A DNA stretch of 42,556 bases, from NCBI GenBank assembly GCA_947441055.1, contig CANETC010000004.1, positions 1 through 42,556 on the forward strand. Direction: 5' to 3'. The notes beneath the pieces are model-generated. The model was not told the DNA's origin. It saw only the letters and a program-made list of their open reading frames with translations, and did not search any database. Shown here one piece after another: positions 29,653 to 39,109 of the stretch (positions are counted from its first letter, which is position 1; every line of letters starts with the position of its first letter). The stretch is from Cytophagaceae bacterium. GTDB lineage: Bacteria; Bacteroidota; Bacteroidia; Cytophagales; Flexibacteraceae. Position numbers and translations under genes: made by a program.

Positions 29653-31533
29653 ATGCTTTCTGAATACGATGTAGTAATTGCTGGTGCCGGCCATGCAGGA
29701 TGTGAAGCAGCAGCAGCGGCCGCAAACATGGGGTCTAAGGTTTTACTGATTACAATGAACATGGGCACCATTGGGCAAATGAGTTGCAACCCGGCGATGG
29801 GTGGTGTAGCAAAAGGCCAGATTGTTCGTGAAATCGATGCCTTGGGAGGACAGTCGGGAATTATTACCGACAAGACCACCATTCAATTCAGAATGCTAAA
29901 CAGATCAAAAGGACCTGCAATGTGGAGTCCTCGGGCACAGAATGACCGTTGGCGTTTTGCAGAGGAGTGGAGACTAAAACTGGAATCCATTTCAAATGTA
30001 GACTTCCTGCAAGACACAGTCCTGGAATTACTGGTGAAAGATGGAAAGGCCATTGGCGTAAAAACCCAGCTTGGGTATCAGATAAAATCAAAAGCAGTTG
30101 TCCTGACAAATGGAACTTTTTTGAATGGACTAATCCATATTGGAGAACAACAAATGAAAGGCGGGCGTATTTCTGAGGCTTCTGCAACTGGGCTGACAGC
30201 ACAATTGCTTGGTCTCGGTTTTGAAAGCGGTCGCATGAAAACCGGAACACCACCCAGATTGGATGGCAGAAGTCTGGATTATTCTCGAATGGATGAACAG
30301 CCTGGTGATGTTAATCCTTCCCGGTTTTCCTTCTCCACAGAAACAACTGAAGTGAAAGAACAAAAAAGCTGCTGGATCACTTATACAAACGACAAAGTCC
30401 ATTCCGTACTGGAAAAAGGCTTTGCCCAATCTCCAATGTTTACCGGAAGAATTCAGGGACTGGGACCACGCTACTGTCCTTCGATTGAAGATAAAATTAC
30501 CCGCTTTGCCGACAAAGACCGACACCAGATATTCATTGAACCAGAAGGCTGGAATACGGTTGAAATCTATGTGAATGGATTTTCTACTTCGCTCCCATAT
30601 GAAGTTCAGTCAGAAGCACTCCGGAATATTCCAGGACTTGAAAAGGCAAAAATATTCAGACCAGGTTATGCGATTGAATACGATTATTTTCCACCAACAC
30701 AGTTAAAACCAACACTAGAAACTTATCTGGTGGATAATCTGTACTTCGCAGGACAAATAAACGGTACCACAGGTTATGAAGAAGCTGCATGCCAAGGTTT
30801 AATGGCAGGTATAAATGCACATCTGAAAATCCGGGAAGAAAACCCATTCGTTTTGGGCAGATCAGAAGCCTACATTGGTGTACTCATTGATGACCTCATT
30901 ACCAAAGGAACTGAAGAGCCGTATCGGATGTTTACCTCCAGAGCAGAATTCAGAACTTTGCTGAGGCAAAACAATGCGGATGTACGACTCACCAAAATGG
31001 GAAGAGAAATTGGTTTGGCCACAGAAGAAAGAGCAAGTGTACTTGAAGACAAGCTCAGCAAAATTGAGAAAACCTTAGAATTCTGGAAGCAACAAAAACT
31101 TCCATTTGATGACATCAACCAAATTCTGGAATCTAAAGGAACGCCTATTCTGACAGAAAAAGCCAGTCTGGAAAATCTTTTGAAAAGACCTCAACTTGAT
31201 GTCGCTGATTTAATCCACCTCGGTGAGAAAATTAATCCTTTCGGTGCAGATATGGAGGTTCTGGAAGAAGCCGAAATTCAGGTCAAATACCAGCCCTATA
31301 TTGAAAAAGAAAGTCAGATTGCCATCCGGATCAATCAAAGCGAAAGCAAAGAATTCAGACGCAACATTAATTTCTTAGAAATAAAGACTCTTTCAAACGA
31401 AGCCAGAGAAAAACTCAGCAAACTCAAACCCAAAACCTTGGGAGAAGCACGAAAAATCAGTGGAATTTCCCAGTCAGACTTAAGTTTGCTTTTACTTTAT
31501 GCCGTACAGCCAGATGAAAACCCAGCACCTTAA
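29653..31533 (+). CDS. mnmG: tRNA uridine-5-carboxymethylaminomethyl modification enzyme MnmG (GidA)
   Basis: 626 aa; 'YDVVIAGAGHAGCEAAAAAANMG', 'SCNPAMGGVAKGQIVREIDALGG', 'GPAMWSPRAQNDR', 'GRIQGLGPRYCPSIEDKI', 'YFAGQINGTTGYEEAACQGLMAGINA'. Confidence 0.98.
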   Translation: MLSEYDVVIAGAGHAGCEAAAAAANMGSKVLLITMNMGTIGQMSCNPAMGGVAKGQIVREIDALGGQSGIITDKTTIQFRMLNRSKGPAMWSPRAQNDRWRFAEEWRLKLESISNVDFLQDTVLELLVKDGKAIGVKTQLGYQIKSKAVVLTNGTFLNGLIHIGEQQMKGGRISEASATGLTAQLLGLGFESGRMKTGTPPRLDGRSLDYSRMDEQPGDVNPSRFSFSTETTEVKEQKSCWITYTNDKVHSVLEKGFAQSPMFTGRIQGLGPRYCPSIEDKITRFADKDRHQIFIEPEGWNTVEIYVNGFSTSLPYEVQSEALRNIPGLEKAKIFRPGYAIEYDYFPPTQLKPTLETYLVDNLYFAGQINGTTGYEEAACQGLMAGINAHLKIREENPFVLGRSEAYIGVLIDDLITKGTEEPYRMFTSRAEFRTLLRQNNADVRLTKMGREIGLATEERASVLEDKLSKIEKTLEFWKQQKLPFDDINQILESKGTPILTEKASLENLLKRPQLDVADLIHLGEKINPFGADMEVLEEAEIQVKYQPYIEKESQIAIRINQSESKEFRRNINFLEIKTLSNEAREKLSKLKPKTLGEARKISGISQSDLSLLLLYAVQPDENPAP

Positions 31534-32404
31534 TCAATGCCCGGCCTGTGGCTCTGCAAATTTTAAACGATTTGGAGAGGTCAAAGACTATTATTATAGT
31601 CAGGAAATATTCCCGATTGAGGAATGTCTTAACTGTGGTTTGCGATTTACCCAGGACAGGCCAAGTGCTGAACACATTGGGGAATATTACGACTCTGGGA
31701 ATTATGCCAGTCATGATTCCAAAAGCAAAACAAGTCTATTCCTGAAAGTGTATGCCACTGCCAGAGACTGGATGCTGGAGCATAAATACAAACTGGTAAA
31801 ACAGTTTAAACCAGAATGGAAAAGAGTACTGGATTATGGGACAGGTGAAGGCTTTTTCGTTGAATTTCTGCGCAAGAAAGGTCTCGATGCAATGGGCATT
31901 GAACCCTCTGAACTGGCACGCGACAATTTTAAGAAGAGAACCGGCAACAACTTATATCCATCCGTTGAAAAACTTCCGGATAATATTGGTTTTCAGGCTA
32001 TTACTCTTTGGCATGTGCTCGAACACATTCATGAACTAAGGCCAACCATGGAAAAACTTGTGGCCAAAATAGAAGAGAAAGGCATCATGGTGATTGCGGT
32101 TCCAAACCAGAAATCCACAGATGCAATTGCTTTCGGAAATGAGTGGGCGGCATGGGATGTTCCCCGTCACCTTTACCATTGGGACGATAAAAGCCTAAGC
32201 ACTTTTATAGCAAGTCTCGGAATGGAAAAAATCTACACAACGCATTTGCCCCTTGATCCTTTTTACATCGGAATGATTTCCGCCCGCTATAAAAAAGAAT
32301 CCACAATTTCGGGTTTGATGACGGGTTTAAAATCTTATCTACACGGCTCAAAAACTCCAGCCGAAGGCTCAACACTACTGAGCATATGGATGAAAACCAA
32401 CTAA
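31514..32404 (+). CDS. Class I SAM-dependent methyltransferase with N-terminal zinc-ribbon-like Cys pairs
   Basis: 'CPACGS...CLNCGLRF', 'RVLDYGTGEGFFVEFLRKKGLDAMGIEPSELA', 'LWHVLEHIHE'. Start chosen at the internal ATG 31514; the ORF track gives 31499. Confidence 0.85.
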   Translation: MKTQHLNQCPACGSANFKRFGEVKDYYYSQEIFPIEECLNCGLRFTQDRPSAEHIGEYYDSGNYASHDSKSKTSLFLKVYATARDWMLEHKYKLVKQFKPEWKRVLDYGTGEGFFVEFLRKKGLDAMGIEPSELARDNFKKRTGNNLYPSVEKLPDNIGFQAITLWHVLEHIHELRPTMEKLVAKIEEKGIMVIAVPNQKSTDAIAFGNEWAAWDVPRHLYHWDDKSLSTFIASLGMEKIYTTHLPLDPFYIGMISARYKKESTISGLMTGLKSYLHGSKTPAEGSTLLSIWMKTN

Positions 32405-32565: not shown

Positions 32566-34052
32566 GAAAAACCATTCACTTTCTGTATTTGGTGGTAATC
32601 ACATTGGTATTTCAACAATGTGCAAGCGTGCAATCCCCACAAGGTGGGCCAAAAGACAGTGCAACGCCAAAACTTCTTTCGTCCAAACCAAACAATGGAG
32701 AAATTGATTTTAAGGGAAAATCCATTTTGCTGGAATATTCTGAAGATGTCCTTGAAAATGAAGGGAAACAACCATTCCTTTCTCCACTAACACAAGTAAG
32801 CGTAGTAGCCATTGGCCGCAAAATCAGAATTACGCCCGATTCGGGCTGGAAAAAGAACCAGACTTATGAACTTCGGCTCAGTAAAAAAGTAAAAGATGAA
32901 CACGAGGGAAATCCTTCGACCGATAGCACAATTCTCTTTTCAACTGGGAATCAGATAAGCAAAAGCAAGATTCAAATAGCGGTAGAAAACCTTTCAGCAA
33001 AAGCGAATACAAAACGAAGTACTTGCCTGCTTCAAGGAAGATCAAACAATACCTATTTCAGTTCCGGAGAAGGTCAATTAAAAGTGGCGGGAATTGAAAA
33101 CGGTACCTATTTAATGGAAGTATTTGCTGATAAAAATGAAAACTTAAAATACGAAGAAGAGGATGGAGATCTATTTACAGACAGTATCCAGATTGACTCA
33201 AGCCATGAAGTAAAAGCGAGGCCGCTTCCACAGATTTACAAACCAATTCGTTGCTTCAAACAAAGACGAGGCGATACCGTAGTGGTGGAAACCAGTAAAC
33301 AGATATTTCCAGACCAACCATTCCTAGATCATTGTGTTGGGAAAAACAGAGAAGGCACCATTTTCTGGCTTTATCCGGTTAAAGAACAAATCATCAGCAG
33401 CCACTTTGATACTCTAGGAAATTGCGTTGTTGATACAATTCAAGTCCAGCAAATTGACAGCAACCGAAGTCTCACGCAATTGCCTTTAAAAAGAAAATCA
33501 AACATCCACATTGCAGGCAAGCAAGTTCATATTCAACTAAACTGGAGTTGGAAACCAATTCACTTTCCAGAAAAACTAGAATACACCAAAGATTCGGTCT
33601 GGATAAAAGCAGATTGGGAAAGACGCGAGTTTGGTATTGAATTGAAATTGCCAATTCTAAAACAAGGTAAACTTCGTTTACGATTCGACAGCTTGGTTCT
33701 ATACAATAAAAATGTGCTCAAGATGGATTCCATTGACATTACAGCATCAGACCTAGATCAAGCTGGAAATATTGGTGGCACCATTGAATCTGGGGAAGAA
33801 AACATCCGTGCCGAATTATTGAATGCCGCCAAAGAAATAAACGGGACAGCTGGCAAAGGAAACTTTCAATGGCTGGCAAAACCAGGGCAATACACCATCC
33901 AGATTTACAGAGATTTAAATGGCGATGGAAGATATACAGGCGGAAACAAAGAAGCCCGGCGAAAAGCCGAGCCTCTGTATATTTATCCGGATAAGATTGA
34001 ACTTAAACCCGGTTGGGATTTGGAAAACATCCGGGTAAAACCGGAATTCTAA
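32562..34052 (+). CDS. Lipoprotein with Ig-like/SbsA-type domain
   Basis: 496 aa; signal peptide and lipobox '[49 protein letters not shown]'; C-terminal '[19 protein letters not shown]'. Confidence 0.8.
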
Positions 34053-35431
34053 ACCATCTCTTCGGGCTTTACCCAAAGATCGAATTCCTCCGCTGTCACA
34101 TAGCCAAGAGCAAGTGCAGATTCTTTCAGGGTAAGATGTTCCTTGTGCGCCTTCTTCGCAATCTCAGCAGCCTTGTAATAGCCAATGTGCGTATTGAGGG
34201 AAGTAACCAGCATAAGGGAATTTTCCAGGTGCCGGCGGATGTACATATGGTTGGGCTCAATGCCAACCACACAATTCTTCTTAAAAGAATCGCAAGCATC
34301 CGACAACAGATTTGCAGCCATCAAGAAATTAAATGCGATCACCGGTTTAAAAACATTCAGTTCAAAGTGTCCATTCATTCCACCAACGGCTATGGCAGCA
34401 TCGTTTCCAATCACCTGAGCACAAACCATGGTTAAGGCTTCGGATTGAGTAGGATTAACTTTTCCAGGCATAATCGAAGACCCAGGCTCATTTTCTGGAA
34501 TCAAAATTTCTCCCAAACCTGAACGCGGACCAGAAGCCAGAAGGCGAATGTCATTTGCAATTTTCATCAAAGAAACTGCCAGTGTCTTTAAGGCACCAGA
34601 AGCAAAAACCATTGCATCATGCGCAGCAAGAGATTCAAACTTATTAGGAGCAGTTACAAATTCATGACCCGTAAGTTCTGAGATCTTCTTTGCCACAAGC
34701 ACATCATAACCTTTGGGCGCATTCAAACCAGTACCAACAGCCGTACCACCGAGAGCGAGTTCTGACAAATGCGGCAAACATTGTTCCACATGACGAATAC
34801 CATGACTGAGCTGGGCCGCATAACCCGAAAACTCCTGACCCAAAGTAAGAGGGGTAGCATCCATTAAATGCGTACGACCAATTTTTACGATATCCTTAAA
34901 TGAGTCCGCTTTGGCAGATAGAACATCCCGCAAAGAAGAAACCATTGGAATAAGCTTCTCACACAAAACTTTTACAGCCGCAATACTCATGGCTGTGGGA
35001 TAAGTATCGTTTGATGATTGAGACTTATTCACATCATCATTCGGATGCAAAACCTTTTTCTCATCAAGTAAATTACCTCCTTGTAAAACATGTGCACGAT
35101 TTGCGATCACCTCATTCAGGTTCATATTGGATTGAGTACCCGAACCTGTTTGCCAGACAACCAAAGGAAACTGATCATCGAGTTTACCAGCCAGAATTTC
35201 ATTGCAGACTTCACCAATCCATTTCATTTTTTCTTCTGGCAGAACACCAAGTTCATGGTTTGCCATCGCGGCAGCATTCTTCAAATAGGCAAAAGCACGC
35301 ACAATTTCGATGGGCATTGTATGTCCACCAATCTGAAAATTCTCCCTTGACCTTTGGGTTTGAGCCCCCCAATACGCAGAAGCAGGAACTTTTACCTCTC
35401 CCATCGTATCTTTTTCAATCCTGTATTCCAT
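34049..35431 (-). CDS. fumC: Class II fumarate hydratase
   Basis: 460 aa; '[30 protein letters not shown]', '[20 protein letters not shown]', '[18 protein letters not shown]', '[26 protein letters not shown]'. Confidence 0.97.
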
Positions 35432-35460
35432 TATAAATCAGTACTTTAAATTTTATCCTT

Positions 35461-35770
35461 TTAGAGAATATTTTGTGGACAAGTCTAAGACAGAATGTGG
35501 ATAAAATAAACTTTGTCCACACCAAGAAACGCCAAAGTTAAAAAGAGCTTTGAAACTCCACTTCCTTCAACATCGAGTAAACCATCTATGAACATTTTTG
35601 GGAAAGAAATCGAAAACTGATCTTGATTAGCTAATAAGTTGAAAATGATTTGTTCTTATTCCTCCTTCTCAAGAATTACTTGAATTATCCACAAAACTTA
35701 TCCACATATCCACAGCCCTGATAATAAGTATTAGAAATATTTAAATATTTGTAAATGATAATTGGTGTGT
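35461..35770. other. Candidate chromosomal replication origin (oriC): DnaA-box cluster plus AT-rich tract
   Basis: Perfect TTATCCACA at 35496-35504 (-), 35685-35693 (+) and 35698-35706 (+). One-mismatch boxes at 35474-35482 (-), 35513-35521 (+) and 35706-35714 (+). AT-rich ATAATAAGTATTAGAAATATTTAAATATTTGTAAATGATAATT follows. It lies between divergent genes. Confidence 0.75.
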
Positions 35771-37617
35771 TGATGATGGGGATAAATCGAATAAATCTGG
35801 CCAGCCGAAAACTGATTCAAATACCCGTTCTATTTTTTCTATTTTCTGTGTCGTCGGTCTTCGCGCAACAGAAGTCAGAAAAGTTAGAATTGGCAGACGA
35901 ATATTTCAAGAGGGAAAATTACGAAAAGGCCCTTGAACTTTATGAAGACTTGAAGGGAAATCCGGCCACAGACAAAAGGCTATTTTCAAATTACCTCACT
36001 TGCCTCGATAAACTCAAACCAACAAAAGCAGAAGCGGCATCAAAAAAATTCCTGAAACGCTATCCGGAAGACATATTCTACTTTTTGAACCACTACAAAC
36101 GAATTCTTGAAATTGAGCATAAGTCAGAGGAAGCAGGAAAATTCGCTGAATCCAAATTGACCCCTTTGTTTTTGAAGTCTTCTCAGGGTGTTACAGATGG
36201 CTTTACATTTTTCGAGGATGCCAAAGACACTGTCAGATCGGAACAGATTCTGGACCAAGGAATCCGAAAGTTTGGTCTGGCTAATTTTTGGGAACTACGA
36301 CTGGAAAAGGATTTGAGGCAAAAGCACTTCAAAGAAGCTGCCGAAATGCTTGTTAAAATTATTGCTGGGAAATTATTGCCGGATTCAGAGCTTGAATCAA
36401 AACTGCAGGAAAAAATAGCCCTTTCAGAATTTTCAAAGCAAATGCAGATTGCCTTGCTTCGACAAATTCAGGCTGAGCCAGGCAATAACTCTTACCCTTC
36501 GTTTTTGGCATGGATTTATATGCAGAAAGGCGATTATGAAGGAGCTCTGAAGCAATACCTCTCTTTGGATTTACTGGACAATAACGGCGGAATCCGTTGT
36601 TTTCAGTTGGCAGAATTCGCTGTTAATTCCGAAGAGGAAAAGGCCGCCATTAAAAGTTATGAGGCCATTATCCGCAATTTCCCAAATTCTCAATACCGGT
36701 TTTTATCTCAGCAAAAGTGTATGCAGCTCCGCGAACAAGGCGTACGAAATACATTCCCTGTGAATAAAAACGATGTTCGGGAATTGATTCACGAATACCA
36801 GGAACTCAGCAACAGCCAATACCTCAATGCATGGGAGCTTACCATGAAGGTTGCCGAATTGTATGGCAAGTATTTAAACAGGCCAGATTCTGCCATACTT
36901 GTGCTTGATGGTAGTATGAAATCCATGCGCTGGCCTCCGGTATTTCTCAATCGGGCAAAGATTTTGCTGGGGGATATGTATTTGCTTCAGGATGAACCAT
37001 GGGAAGCAAGTTTGCTGTACGGACAGGTGGAGAAAGATGAAGCCGAAAGCATTGTGGGCTATGAAGCCAAATTGAAAAATGCGAAGGTCTTTTACTACAA
37101 AGGTGATTTTGAACTGTGCAAGGAACTTTTGGATGTGTTGAAACAGAGTACAAGCCGCGACATCAGCAACGATGCCATAGAACTTGGTTTGCTTATTCAG
37201 GATATCATGGCTGAGGATACAACAGGATTTTTCTTGTCGAAATTTGCCGAGATTGATTTACTGACCTATCAGGGAAATTATCCTGAATCTATTGACAGGA
37301 TTGAAAAAATGGCCTTTACAACTTCCAATCCGGTGGTAATGGAAAAGCTTCGTTTTCGATTGTTCCGGAATTATGAAGCAACCCGGCAATTTGACAAAGC
37401 CCTTGCCGAACTCGAACAGATTTACAAGGTGAAGGCATCAGATTTGTATCTGGATGATGCGCTTTTTTACAGCGGGTTTATTTATGCCGAGCAGAAAAAG
37501 GACAAGGAAAAAGCCATGGAGTTTTTTCTAATGTTGATAAAGGAAAAACCAGGTTCTGTTTATGTGGCCGAGGCCAGAAAACGCCTCAGGCAACTGCGCG
37601 GTGATTTTGCGAATTGA
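35755..37617 (+). CDS. Tetratricopeptide repeat protein
   Basis: 620 aa; signal peptide, then 'KLELADEYFKRENYEKALELYEDL', 'KGDYEGALKQYLSLDLLDNNGGIRCFQLAEFAV', 'QFDKALAELEQIYKVKASDLYLDDALFYSGFIYAEQKKDKEKAMEFFLMLIKEKPGSVYVAEARKRL'. Confidence 0.85.
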   Translation: MIIGVLMMGINRINLASRKLIQIPVLFFLFSVSSVFAQQKSEKLELADEYFKRENYEKALELYEDLKGNPATDKRLFSNYLTCLDKLKPTKAEAASKKFLKRYPEDIFYFLNHYKRILEIEHKSEEAGKFAESKLTPLFLKSSQGVTDGFTFFEDAKDTVRSEQILDQGIRKFGLANFWELRLEKDLRQKHFKEAAEMLVKIIAGKLLPDSELESKLQEKIALSEFSKQMQIALLRQIQAEPGNNSYPSFLAWIYMQKGDYEGALKQYLSLDLLDNNGGIRCFQLAEFAVNSEEEKAAIKSYEAIIRNFPNSQYRFLSQQKCMQLREQGVRNTFPVNKNDVRELIHEYQELSNSQYLNAWELTMKVAELYGKYLNRPDSAILVLDGSMKSMRWPPVFLNRAKILLGDMYLLQDEPWEASLLYGQVEKDEAESIVGYEAKLKNAKVFYYKGDFELCKELLDVLKQSTSRDISNDAIELGLLIQDIMAEDTTGFFLSKFAEIDLLTYQGNYPESIDRIEKMAFTTSNPVVMEKLRFRLFRNYEATRQFDKALAELEQIYKVKASDLYLDDALFYSGFIYAEQKKDKEKAMEFFLMLIKEKPGSVYVAEARKRLRQLRGDFAN

Positions 37618-37700
37618 GTTGTAACTGTTTTTTGGTGGGTGCCGTTTGATGGTATGATGGTTGCCATTTTTTATTGGTTTTTTAGTAATAATATATCCTG

Positions 37701-37716
37701 AAAGTATATACTTTTG
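37701..37716 (+). promoter_or_regulatory. Palindromic operator-like site overlapping a TAnnTTTG -7 box upstream of the toxin-antitoxin pair
   Basis: AAAGTATATACTTT (perfect palindrome, 37701-37714) overlaps TACTTTTG (37709-37716), 16 bp before the antitoxin ATG. Confidence 0.6.
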
Positions 37717-37731
37717 TGAAAAACCTGTGCC

Positions 37732-37962
37732 ATGAAAACCCTTTCCCTGAAACTCGACGATGAGATATTTGAAGAAACAGAATCCATCACTTCGGTATTG
37801 AAGCTTCCGCGCAACCGGTACATCAACGATGCGCTTCGGATGTACAACCGCTTCCATAAGCGCCGTCGCCTCAAAGCCCAACTGGAGGCTGAATCTGGTA
37901 TGGTTGCAGCAGAATCCATGGATGTGTTGTATGGGTTCGAAGGCCTTGTTGATGAAGATTAA
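37732..37962 (+). CDS. Antitoxin, ribbon-helix-helix-like
   Basis: 76 aa; 'MKTLSLKLDDEIFEETESITSVLKLPRNRYINDALRMYNRFHKRR'; overlaps the downstream MazF-like gene. Confidence 0.8.
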   Translation: MKTLSLKLDDEIFEETESITSVLKLPRNRYINDALRMYNRFHKRRRLKAQLEAESGMVAAESMDVLYGFEGLVDED

Positions 37963-38290
37963 GCAGTTCGATATCTGGCTGGCCAACCTGAATCCGGGAA
38001 AAGGCACTGAACCCGGAAAAACCCGGCCCGTTGTCATCGTGCAGACAGATTTTCTAAACAATACCCATCCCTCAACGATTATTTGTCCGGTAACTTCACA
38101 GGTTCATGAAGAAGCAAAATTGCTGCGAATCCATCTCGTAAAAGAGCAGCTTGACAAAGAATCCGATGTGCTGATAGATCAGATCCGGGCCATCGATAAC
38201 CGCCGGTTGATGCAGAAATTGGGTTCATTGAACAGCACACAAATTCGCAATCTGAAAAGCAGCCTCAGGATTGTGCTGGACCTGGAATAG
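37952..38290 (+). CDS. MazF/PemK-family toxin
   Basis: 112 aa from ATG 37952: 'MKIKQFDIWLANLNPGKGTEPGKTRPVVIVQTDFLNNTHPSTIICPVTS...DQIRAIDNRRLMQKLGSL'. The listed ORF start at 37829 is an upstream extension. Confidence 0.92.
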   Translation: MKIKQFDIWLANLNPGKGTEPGKTRPVVIVQTDFLNNTHPSTIICPVTSQVHEEAKLLRIHLVKEQLDKESDVLIDQIRAIDNRRLMQKLGSLNSTQIRNLKSSLRIVLDLE

Positions 38291-38347
38291 CCGTATGCCT
38301 GGCTATCTTACTGGAGAATATTCATCCTTAAGCTTTGCTTCATGCCC

Positions 38348-39109
38348 CTACTTTTTCCCGCGAAGCATTCCTGGTTTGTTTAGCATCAATTCCCGGATAA
38401 CCACACTTGCCATGGTGCAGCCGAATACAGCGGGCATGTAGCTGATGGTGCCAATCAGAGATCTCTTTGGATTTCCTTCCGGAGCCGGAATGATTCGGCT
38501 TTGATCTGCTTTTTCCGGACTCCAAACCACAGTTAAGGCTCGGTTTTTCAAACCCATTTGACTCAAGCGCTTGCGCACATAGGACGCCAGATTGCAGTTG
38601 TAGCTTTTCCACAAACTGCTTACCTGTACTTGGGTTGGATCGATCTTTCCTCCAGCGCCCATGGATGAAACAATTGGGAGTCCGAATTCAAAACATTTTT
38701 TTATTAGGAAAACCTTAGGTGAAAGCGTATCAATGCAATCCACAACATAATCGTATTTTTCTGCAAGAAGGATTTCGTTGGTGCATTCTTCACGCATGTA
38801 AATCGGAAATTCCTTGAGAATAATATCTGGATTGATATCCCGGATTCGCTCGGCCATTACCTCAGATTTTAATTTGTCTTCTGTGCTCACAAGAGCCGGC
38901 GCCTGCCGGTTTCTGTTGCTGGCCTCTACGGTATCAGCATCCACGATGCTCATGCGACCTACGCCCGCTCTGGCGATCATCTCGGCACATATGCCACCTA
39001 CGCCTCCAAGGCCAACCACAAGTACATTGGCTTTCATGAGGCGTTCAATAGGTTCATCTCCAAGCAGGAGACGGGTACGGCCCATCCAAACCGGAATTTC
39101 TTGCTGCAT
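38348..39109 (-). CDS. tcdA: tRNA threonylcarbamoyladenosine dehydratase (ThiF/MoeB-like)
   Basis: 'MQQEIPVWMGRTRLLLGDEPIERLMKANVLVVGLGGVGGICAEMIARAGVGRMSIVDADTVEASNRNRQ', 'DYVVDCIDTLSPKVFLI'. Listed ORF starts at 39142; the Met at 39109 is preferred. Confidence 0.9.
   Translation of the reverse strand: MQQEIPVWMGRTRLLLGDEPIERLMKANVLVVGLGGVGGICAEMIARAGVGRMSIVDADTVEASNRNRQAPALVSTEDKLKSEVMAERIRDINPDIILKEFPIYMREECTNEILLAEKYDYVVDCIDTLSPKVFLIKKCFEFGLPIVSSMGAGGKIDPTQVQVSSLWKSYNCNLASYVRKRLSQMGLKNRALTVVWSPEKADQSRIIPAPEGNPKRSLIGTISYMPAVFGCTMASVVIRELMLNKPGMLRGKK

What the first reader, a model, noticed from the sequence alone, without database searches (positions are those of the whole stretch)
35461..35770. 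Candidate chromosomal origin of replication between fumC and a TPR gene
Seen directly: three perfect TTATCCACA boxes (35496 -, 35685 +, 35698 +) and three one-mismatch boxes (35474 -, 35513 +, 35706 +) within 250 bp. Three exact 9-mers compares with about 0.002 expected by chance in 250 bp on both strands at uniform composition. The last three boxes are tightly packed and head straight into a short GC patch (GCCCTG) and a strongly AT-rich tract (ATAATAAGTATTAGAAATATTTAAATATTTG). That matches the established DnaA-box, GC-cluster, unwinding-element layout; 'TAATAAGTATTAG' could be DnaA-trio-like, though this is tentative. The flanking genes diverge from the site. dnaA itself is not in the window.
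Basis: partly seen in the sequence, partly recalled or inferred. Interest (0 to 1): 0.72.

Follow-up and report, generated by a model that had tools for sequence, protein, structure and literature searches.

The report
Likely chromosomal replication origin, dnaA elsewhere
This stretch is very probably where the bacterium starts copying its chromosome: a cluster of binding sites for the starter protein DnaA beside an easily melted AT-rich tract, kept in the same place in most related bacteria, and an ordinary origin for this group.

Summary
In detail: three exact and three one-mismatch DnaA boxes at the stated positions, followed by GCCCTG and the most AT-rich 40 bp of the whole window. It is very probably the chromosomal oriC. 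Among five members of the genus, the two box modules are about 90% invariant while the 149 bp between them is 3% invariant. A significant box cluster lies directly upstream of the same TPR gene in 23 of 30 genomes of the order; upstream of dnaA there is a cluster in only 2 of 28. In a closed relative, GC skew changes sign within about 20 kb of this position, and dnaA lies deep inside one arm. In the window itself, the gene-level GC3-skew minimum falls exactly between fumC and the TPR gene. The deeper flank is mnmG–[boxes]–TPR; fumC is found there only within the genus. The DnaA-trio suggestion is not supported (chance level, absent in two of five relatives). mnmG-adjacent, dnaA-distant origins are already predicted for other Bacteroidota, so this is a new member of a known kind. 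The genus also carries a second conserved DnaA-box cluster near dnaA, without a consistent skew change, probably regulatory. No replication assay was possible.

The parts
35474..35482 (-). DnaA box TTGTCCACA (1 mismatch), left module
   Evidence: left module 35474-35504 is 28/31 invariant in five genus members
35496..35504 (-). DnaA box TTATCCACA (exact), left module
35513..35521 (+). DnaA box TTGTCCACA (1 mismatch); CTATCCACA in two relatives
35522..35670 (.). variable spacer between the two box modules (4/149 invariant)
35685..35693 (+). DnaA box TTATCCACA (exact), right module
35698..35706 (+). DnaA box TTATCCACA (exact), right module
   Evidence: right module 35683-35714 is 29/32 invariant
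35706..35714 (+). DnaA box ATATCCACA (1 mismatch), overlaps the previous one by one base
35715..35720 (.). short GC patch GCCCTG
   Evidence: CCC[CT]T in relatives
35721..35763 (.). AT-rich tract, candidate DNA unwinding element (most AT-rich 40-mer of the window, 90%)
   Evidence: 23/40 columns of 35715-35754 invariant in genus
35755..37617 (+). TPR-repeat protein conserved across the class; origin-adjacent marker gene
34049..35431 (-). fumC, class II fumarate hydratase; flank specific to the genus
31499..32404 (+). class I methyltransferase, syntenic with the origin in other genera and families (G009, G014, G037)
29653..31533 (+). mnmG (gidA), an established origin-associated gene
   Evidence: PMC2099444

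Best explanation
The fumC-TPR intergenic region is the chromosomal origin of replication (oriC) of this Cytophagales bacterium. DnaA would bind the left module (two to three boxes) and the right module (three co-directional boxes), join into an oligomer across the variable spacer, and open the adjacent AT-rich tract at 35721-35763 so that the helicase can load and two forks leave in opposite directions. Shown here: the elements, their conservation, order-wide position and skew. Inferred: DnaA binding, looping, unwinding and helicase loading.
For: Boxes far beyond chance. AT tract is the window's extreme. The two modules are conserved and the spacer is not, as expected for protein-bound DNA. 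A box cluster sits upstream of the orthologous TPR gene in 23/30 order genomes at p<=0.005 each, against 2/28 upstream of dnaA (Fisher p 5e-8). In closed genome G037 GC skew is negative from 4.3 to 6.63 Mb and positive from 6.65 Mb round to 3.0 Mb; the TPR/box site is at 6.624 Mb and dnaA at 0.92 Mb inside the positive arm. In G018 GC3 skew changes sign at roughly 1.5-1.8 Mb with TPR at 1.745 Mb. In the window the GC3-skew minimum is exactly at the site (p=0.0007-0.0008 by permutation at the preset site). Synteny mnmG-methyltransferase-site-TPR in G009, G014 and G037, and mnmG-site-TPR in G018; mnmG is an established origin neighbour.
Against: The window genome is a 249-contig, 89%-complete draft, so its own whole-chromosome skew could not be drawn. 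Local GC3 steps almost as large (0.13-0.14) occur in two of four control contigs of the same genome. G001 and G003 give no significant skew step at the site. Seven of 30 relatives have no box cluster at the TPR gene, and in families f2 and f12 clusters lie elsewhere. In G037 the sign change is about 20 kb from the site. A second conserved cluster exists in the genus.
Confidence: 0.91

Rival explanations
1. The true origin is the other box cluster, on contig C150 about 1.4 kb upstream of dnaA (three exact boxes in 58 bp), and the window site is a DnaA titration or regulatory site.
For: Three exact boxes in 58 bp, conserved in all five genus members with an inverted pair of constant 28-bp length; near dnaA in own, G004 and G001.
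Against: No consistent skew change there (G001 p=0.05 with both sides negative, G002 p=0.93, G004 p=0.51). No AT-rich tract of the window site's kind is obvious beside it (by eye). It follows the dipeptidase/periplasmic-binding-protein gene pair rather than dnaA. dnaA upstream regions in other genera lack clusters. It is not the site that is conserved order-wide.
Confidence: 0.05
2. The boxes are DnaA-controlled promoter elements of the divergent fumC and TPR genes and have no origin function.
For: They lie between divergent genes, and four weak promoter-like matches on the minus strand are present.
Against: The promoter-like count is not clearly beyond shuffles (4 against 2.1 +/- 1.6). The boxes stay at the TPR gene in families where fumC is absent. 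The skew switch and the order-wide box arrays of up to 19 exact or one-mismatch boxes in 800 bp are not explained.
Confidence: 0.03
3. Chance accumulation of the common 9-mer in AT-rich intergenic DNA.
For: Intergenic DNA here is AT-rich.
Against: Expected about 0.0002 such triples genome-wide. Conserved in five species and recurrent in 23/30 genomes.
Confidence: 0.01

Closest known systems
mnmG-linked oriC predicted in Flavobacteriaceae (Mariniflexile litorale, PMC11278836; Algorimicrobium bowmanii, PMC12843772)
   Same: Origin predicted next to mnmG, supported by GC skew; in M. litorale dnaA is stated not to match the skew.
   Different: Different order. In our genus two further genes and fumC separate mnmG from the site. 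The TPR neighbour is not mentioned in the passages read. (The M. litorale figure legend labels oriC and ter the other way round from its text.)
Elizabethkingia meningoseptica oriC (PMC8994065)
   Same: Ori-Finder origin with three DnaA boxes and AT-rich tracts, 1.87 Mb from dnaA.
   Different: Different order; flanking genes not compared here.
E. coli oriC (between mnmG/gidA and mioC)
   Same: DnaA-box array next to an AT-rich unwinding tract, with mnmG close by and dnaA away from oriC (own knowledge; gidA/mioC flanks in PMC4446571 abstract).
   Different: Different box arrangement; no GATC or IHF elements were examined here.
B. subtilis basal unwinding system (BUS: tandem DnaA boxes plus DnaA-trios)
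   Same: Tandem boxes with the upstream one closer to consensus; 11 bp from the exact box to the first triplet.
   Different: Trio repeats are at chance level and not conserved in the genus.

Membership tests
bacterial chromosomal oriC | cluster of DnaA boxes beyond chance | tested here: met
bacterial chromosomal oriC | adjacent AT-rich unwinding tract | tested here: met
   90% AT over 40 bp from 35721, highest in the window; melting itself not tested
bacterial chromosomal oriC | GC-skew minimum at the site | tested here: inconclusive
   Met locally in the window and within about 20 kb at the orthologous site of closed G037; consistent but broad in G018, noisy in G014; the own chromosome is too fragmented
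bacterial chromosomal oriC | conserved sequence and position in relatives | tested here: met
   five genus members; 23/30 in the order
bacterial chromosomal oriC | replication starts here in cells; DnaA binds | not testable with these tools
   needs marker-frequency sequencing, footprinting or an oriC plasmid
mnmG-linked Bacteroidota origin | mnmG adjacent, dnaA distant | tested here: met
   mnmG ends 3.9 kb left of the first box here; it is within about 2-5 kb of the TPR gene in G009, G014, G018 and G037; dnaA on other contigs or far away
BUS-type origin with DnaA-trios | at least three 3'-NAN-5' triplets within 16 bp of a box, beyond chance and conserved | tested here: not met
   Three in own, G004 and G003, one in G001 and G002; 23% of random window sites reach three or more

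The most novel reading that the evidence does not exclude
In this genus a second DnaA-box site (three to four exact boxes with an inverted pair of constant 28-bp length, between an M15 dipeptidase gene and a periplasmic-binding-protein gene) works with oriC as a dedicated DnaA-controlling element of the datA/DARS kind, which would be new for Bacteroidota as far as I know.
Probability: 0.25. Interest if true: 0.5.

Novelty: new member of a known kind. Interest (0 to 1): 0.3.

Why it matters
It gives a sequence-level origin for an uncultured Cytophagales genus. It also gives a practical marker (box array upstream of a conserved TPR gene, near mnmG) for placing the origin across most of the order, where dnaA misleads: assemblies rotated to dnaA do not start at the origin, and growth-rate estimates from read depth need the right one. 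Loss of the array in some families, and changed box spelling in others, make origin relocation and DnaA-box co-evolution testable.

Tried and rejected
DnaA-trios: counted in the orientation taken from the published motif and rejected as chance level. Single-strand structure of 35461-35770: no better than shuffles, z -0.19. Rfam: no hit in 34000-38500. Promoters/terminators: nothing clearly beyond shuffles. dnaA-proximal origin: within 1.5 kb upstream of dnaA a cluster is found only in own and G004, and there is no consistent skew change at that cluster. Plain GC skew in the window is too noisy, so GC3 skew by gene was used. G014 skew was too noisy to place a minimum better than about 2.7-3.9 Mb.

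Full report
What is there. There are no other exact boxes in 42.5 kb. The genome has 44 exact boxes in 2.95 Mb, so about 0.0002 triples this tight are expected by chance in the whole genome. The last three boxes run into GCCCTG and then an AT tract that contains the most AT-rich 40-mer in the window (90%, from 35721). fumC and a TPR-repeat gene diverge from the site.

Where it is from. The window is contig C4 of a draft genome with 249 contigs and 89% completeness. Its nearest named relatives are metagenome assemblies labelled Spirosoma fluviale and Cytophagaceae bacterium, which points to Cytophagales.

Conservation in the genus. Five genus members align over the site. The left box module (35474-35504) is 28/31 invariant and the right box module (35683-35714) 29/32. 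The GC patch plus AT tract is 23/40, and the 149-bp spacer between the modules only 4/149. Conserved modules held apart by free sequence fit a protein-DNA complex such as an origin.

Conservation in the order. The TPR gene was found in 52 of 59 relatives and 108 of 119 class genomes. Of 30 order genomes whose TPR upstream 800 bp I could read, 23 carry more boxes than any of 200 first-order Markov shuffles, with 5 to 19 exact or one-mismatch boxes against a null mean below 0.5. The 1.5 kb upstream of dnaA carries a cluster in only 2 of 28 genomes; Fisher p 5e-8. These genomes are related, so the p value overstates independence. Box spelling shifts in places: G047 has 15 copies of TTATTCACA and G056 mostly TTATCAACA.

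Synteny. In G009, G014 and G037 the order is mnmG, methyltransferase, box site, TPR; in G018 it is mnmG, site, TPR. fumC stands next to the site only in the window's genus. mnmG (gidA) belongs to the set of origin-associated genes used to locate bacterial origins (PMC2099444). For two Flavobacteriaceae the predicted origin is at mnmG with skew support, and in one of them dnaA is stated not to match the skew (PMC11278836, PMC12843772).

Skew. Closed relative G037: sampled 20-kb stretches are negative from 4.3 Mb to 6.63 Mb and positive from 6.65 Mb round to 3.0 Mb, mixed at 3.4-3.8 Mb (the other switch, presumably the terminus). The site is at 6.624 Mb and dnaA at 0.92 Mb in a uniform arm. The switch is about 20 kb from the site, with some withheld bases nearby. 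G018: GC3 skew is mostly negative below 1.5 Mb, mixed around 1.55-1.85 Mb and mostly positive above, with TPR at 1.745 Mb and dnaA at 0.98 Mb in the negative arm. G014 is noisy. In the window, gene-by-gene GC3 skew has its cumulative minimum exactly between fumC and the TPR gene: left -0.053, right +0.093, permutation p 0.0007-0.0008. G002 agrees (p about 0.014); G001 and G003 do not reach significance. Two of four control contigs show steps of similar size somewhere along their length, so the local skew supports the reading and does not decide it.

The competing cluster. The genome has one other tight group of exact boxes, C150:4474-4531, 1.4 kb upstream of dnaA. It is present in all five genus members between an M15 dipeptidase gene and a periplasmic-binding-protein gene, with an inverted pair of constant 28-bp length. 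In G002 the cluster contig (C27) is not the dnaA contig (C42), and in G003 it lies about 4.7 kb beyond the dnaA 3' end. Skew does not change consistently there. I read it as a DnaA-regulatory or titration site, possibly doubling as a terminator hairpin between convergent genes. This is inference.

What did not hold. The DnaA-trio suggestion: BUS prediction requires at least three 3'-NAN-5' triplets within 16 bp of a box (PMC8287927). The site has exactly three, but 23% of random window sites reach three or more, and G001 and G002 have one.

How it probably works. DnaA binds both modules, loops or bridges the spacer, and opens the AT tract next to the co-directional boxes; helicase loading and bidirectional forks follow. 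The elements and their conservation are shown; every biochemical step is inferred from the general oriC model.

Verdict. A chromosomal origin with about 0.91 confidence, a new member of a known kind. The useful additions are the order-wide TPR/mnmG marker and the second conserved cluster. My literature searches found no description of the TPR-linked origin in Cytophagales, but the library is limited to open-licence papers and the DoriC records themselves could not be consulted.

Noticed in passing
G000 contig C150:4474-4531 (locus L031): Second conserved cluster of three exact DnaA boxes near dnaA, with an inverted pair of constant 28-bp length in all five genus members, between convergent dipeptidase and periplasmic-binding-protein genes; candidate datA/DARS-like site or terminator.
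   Followed up: partly
L052 (G047) and L046 (G056), upstream of the TPR gene: The DnaA box changes spelling: 15 copies of TTATTCACA in G047 and mostly TTATCAACA in G056; G047's genus mates G013 and G032 show no such array. Possible co-evolution of DnaA domain IV and box, or origin relocation.
   Followed up: no
G045:C1:2058889-2059309, G053:C1:2209114-2209153: In families f2 and f12 tandem exact boxes lie about 0.24 to 1.2 Mb from the TPR gene, suggesting that origin and TPR gene have separated there.
   Followed up: no
window 37829-38290 (+): PemK/MazF-like toxin gene between the TPR gene and a tcdA-like gene, also next to the TPR gene in G004; not found by tblastn in the G001-G003 loci; no antitoxin gene was looked for.
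   Followed up: no
G182, contigs C77, C73 and C179: Unusually many tandem exact DnaA boxes (27 pair matches) scattered over many contigs of one genome.
   Followed up: no
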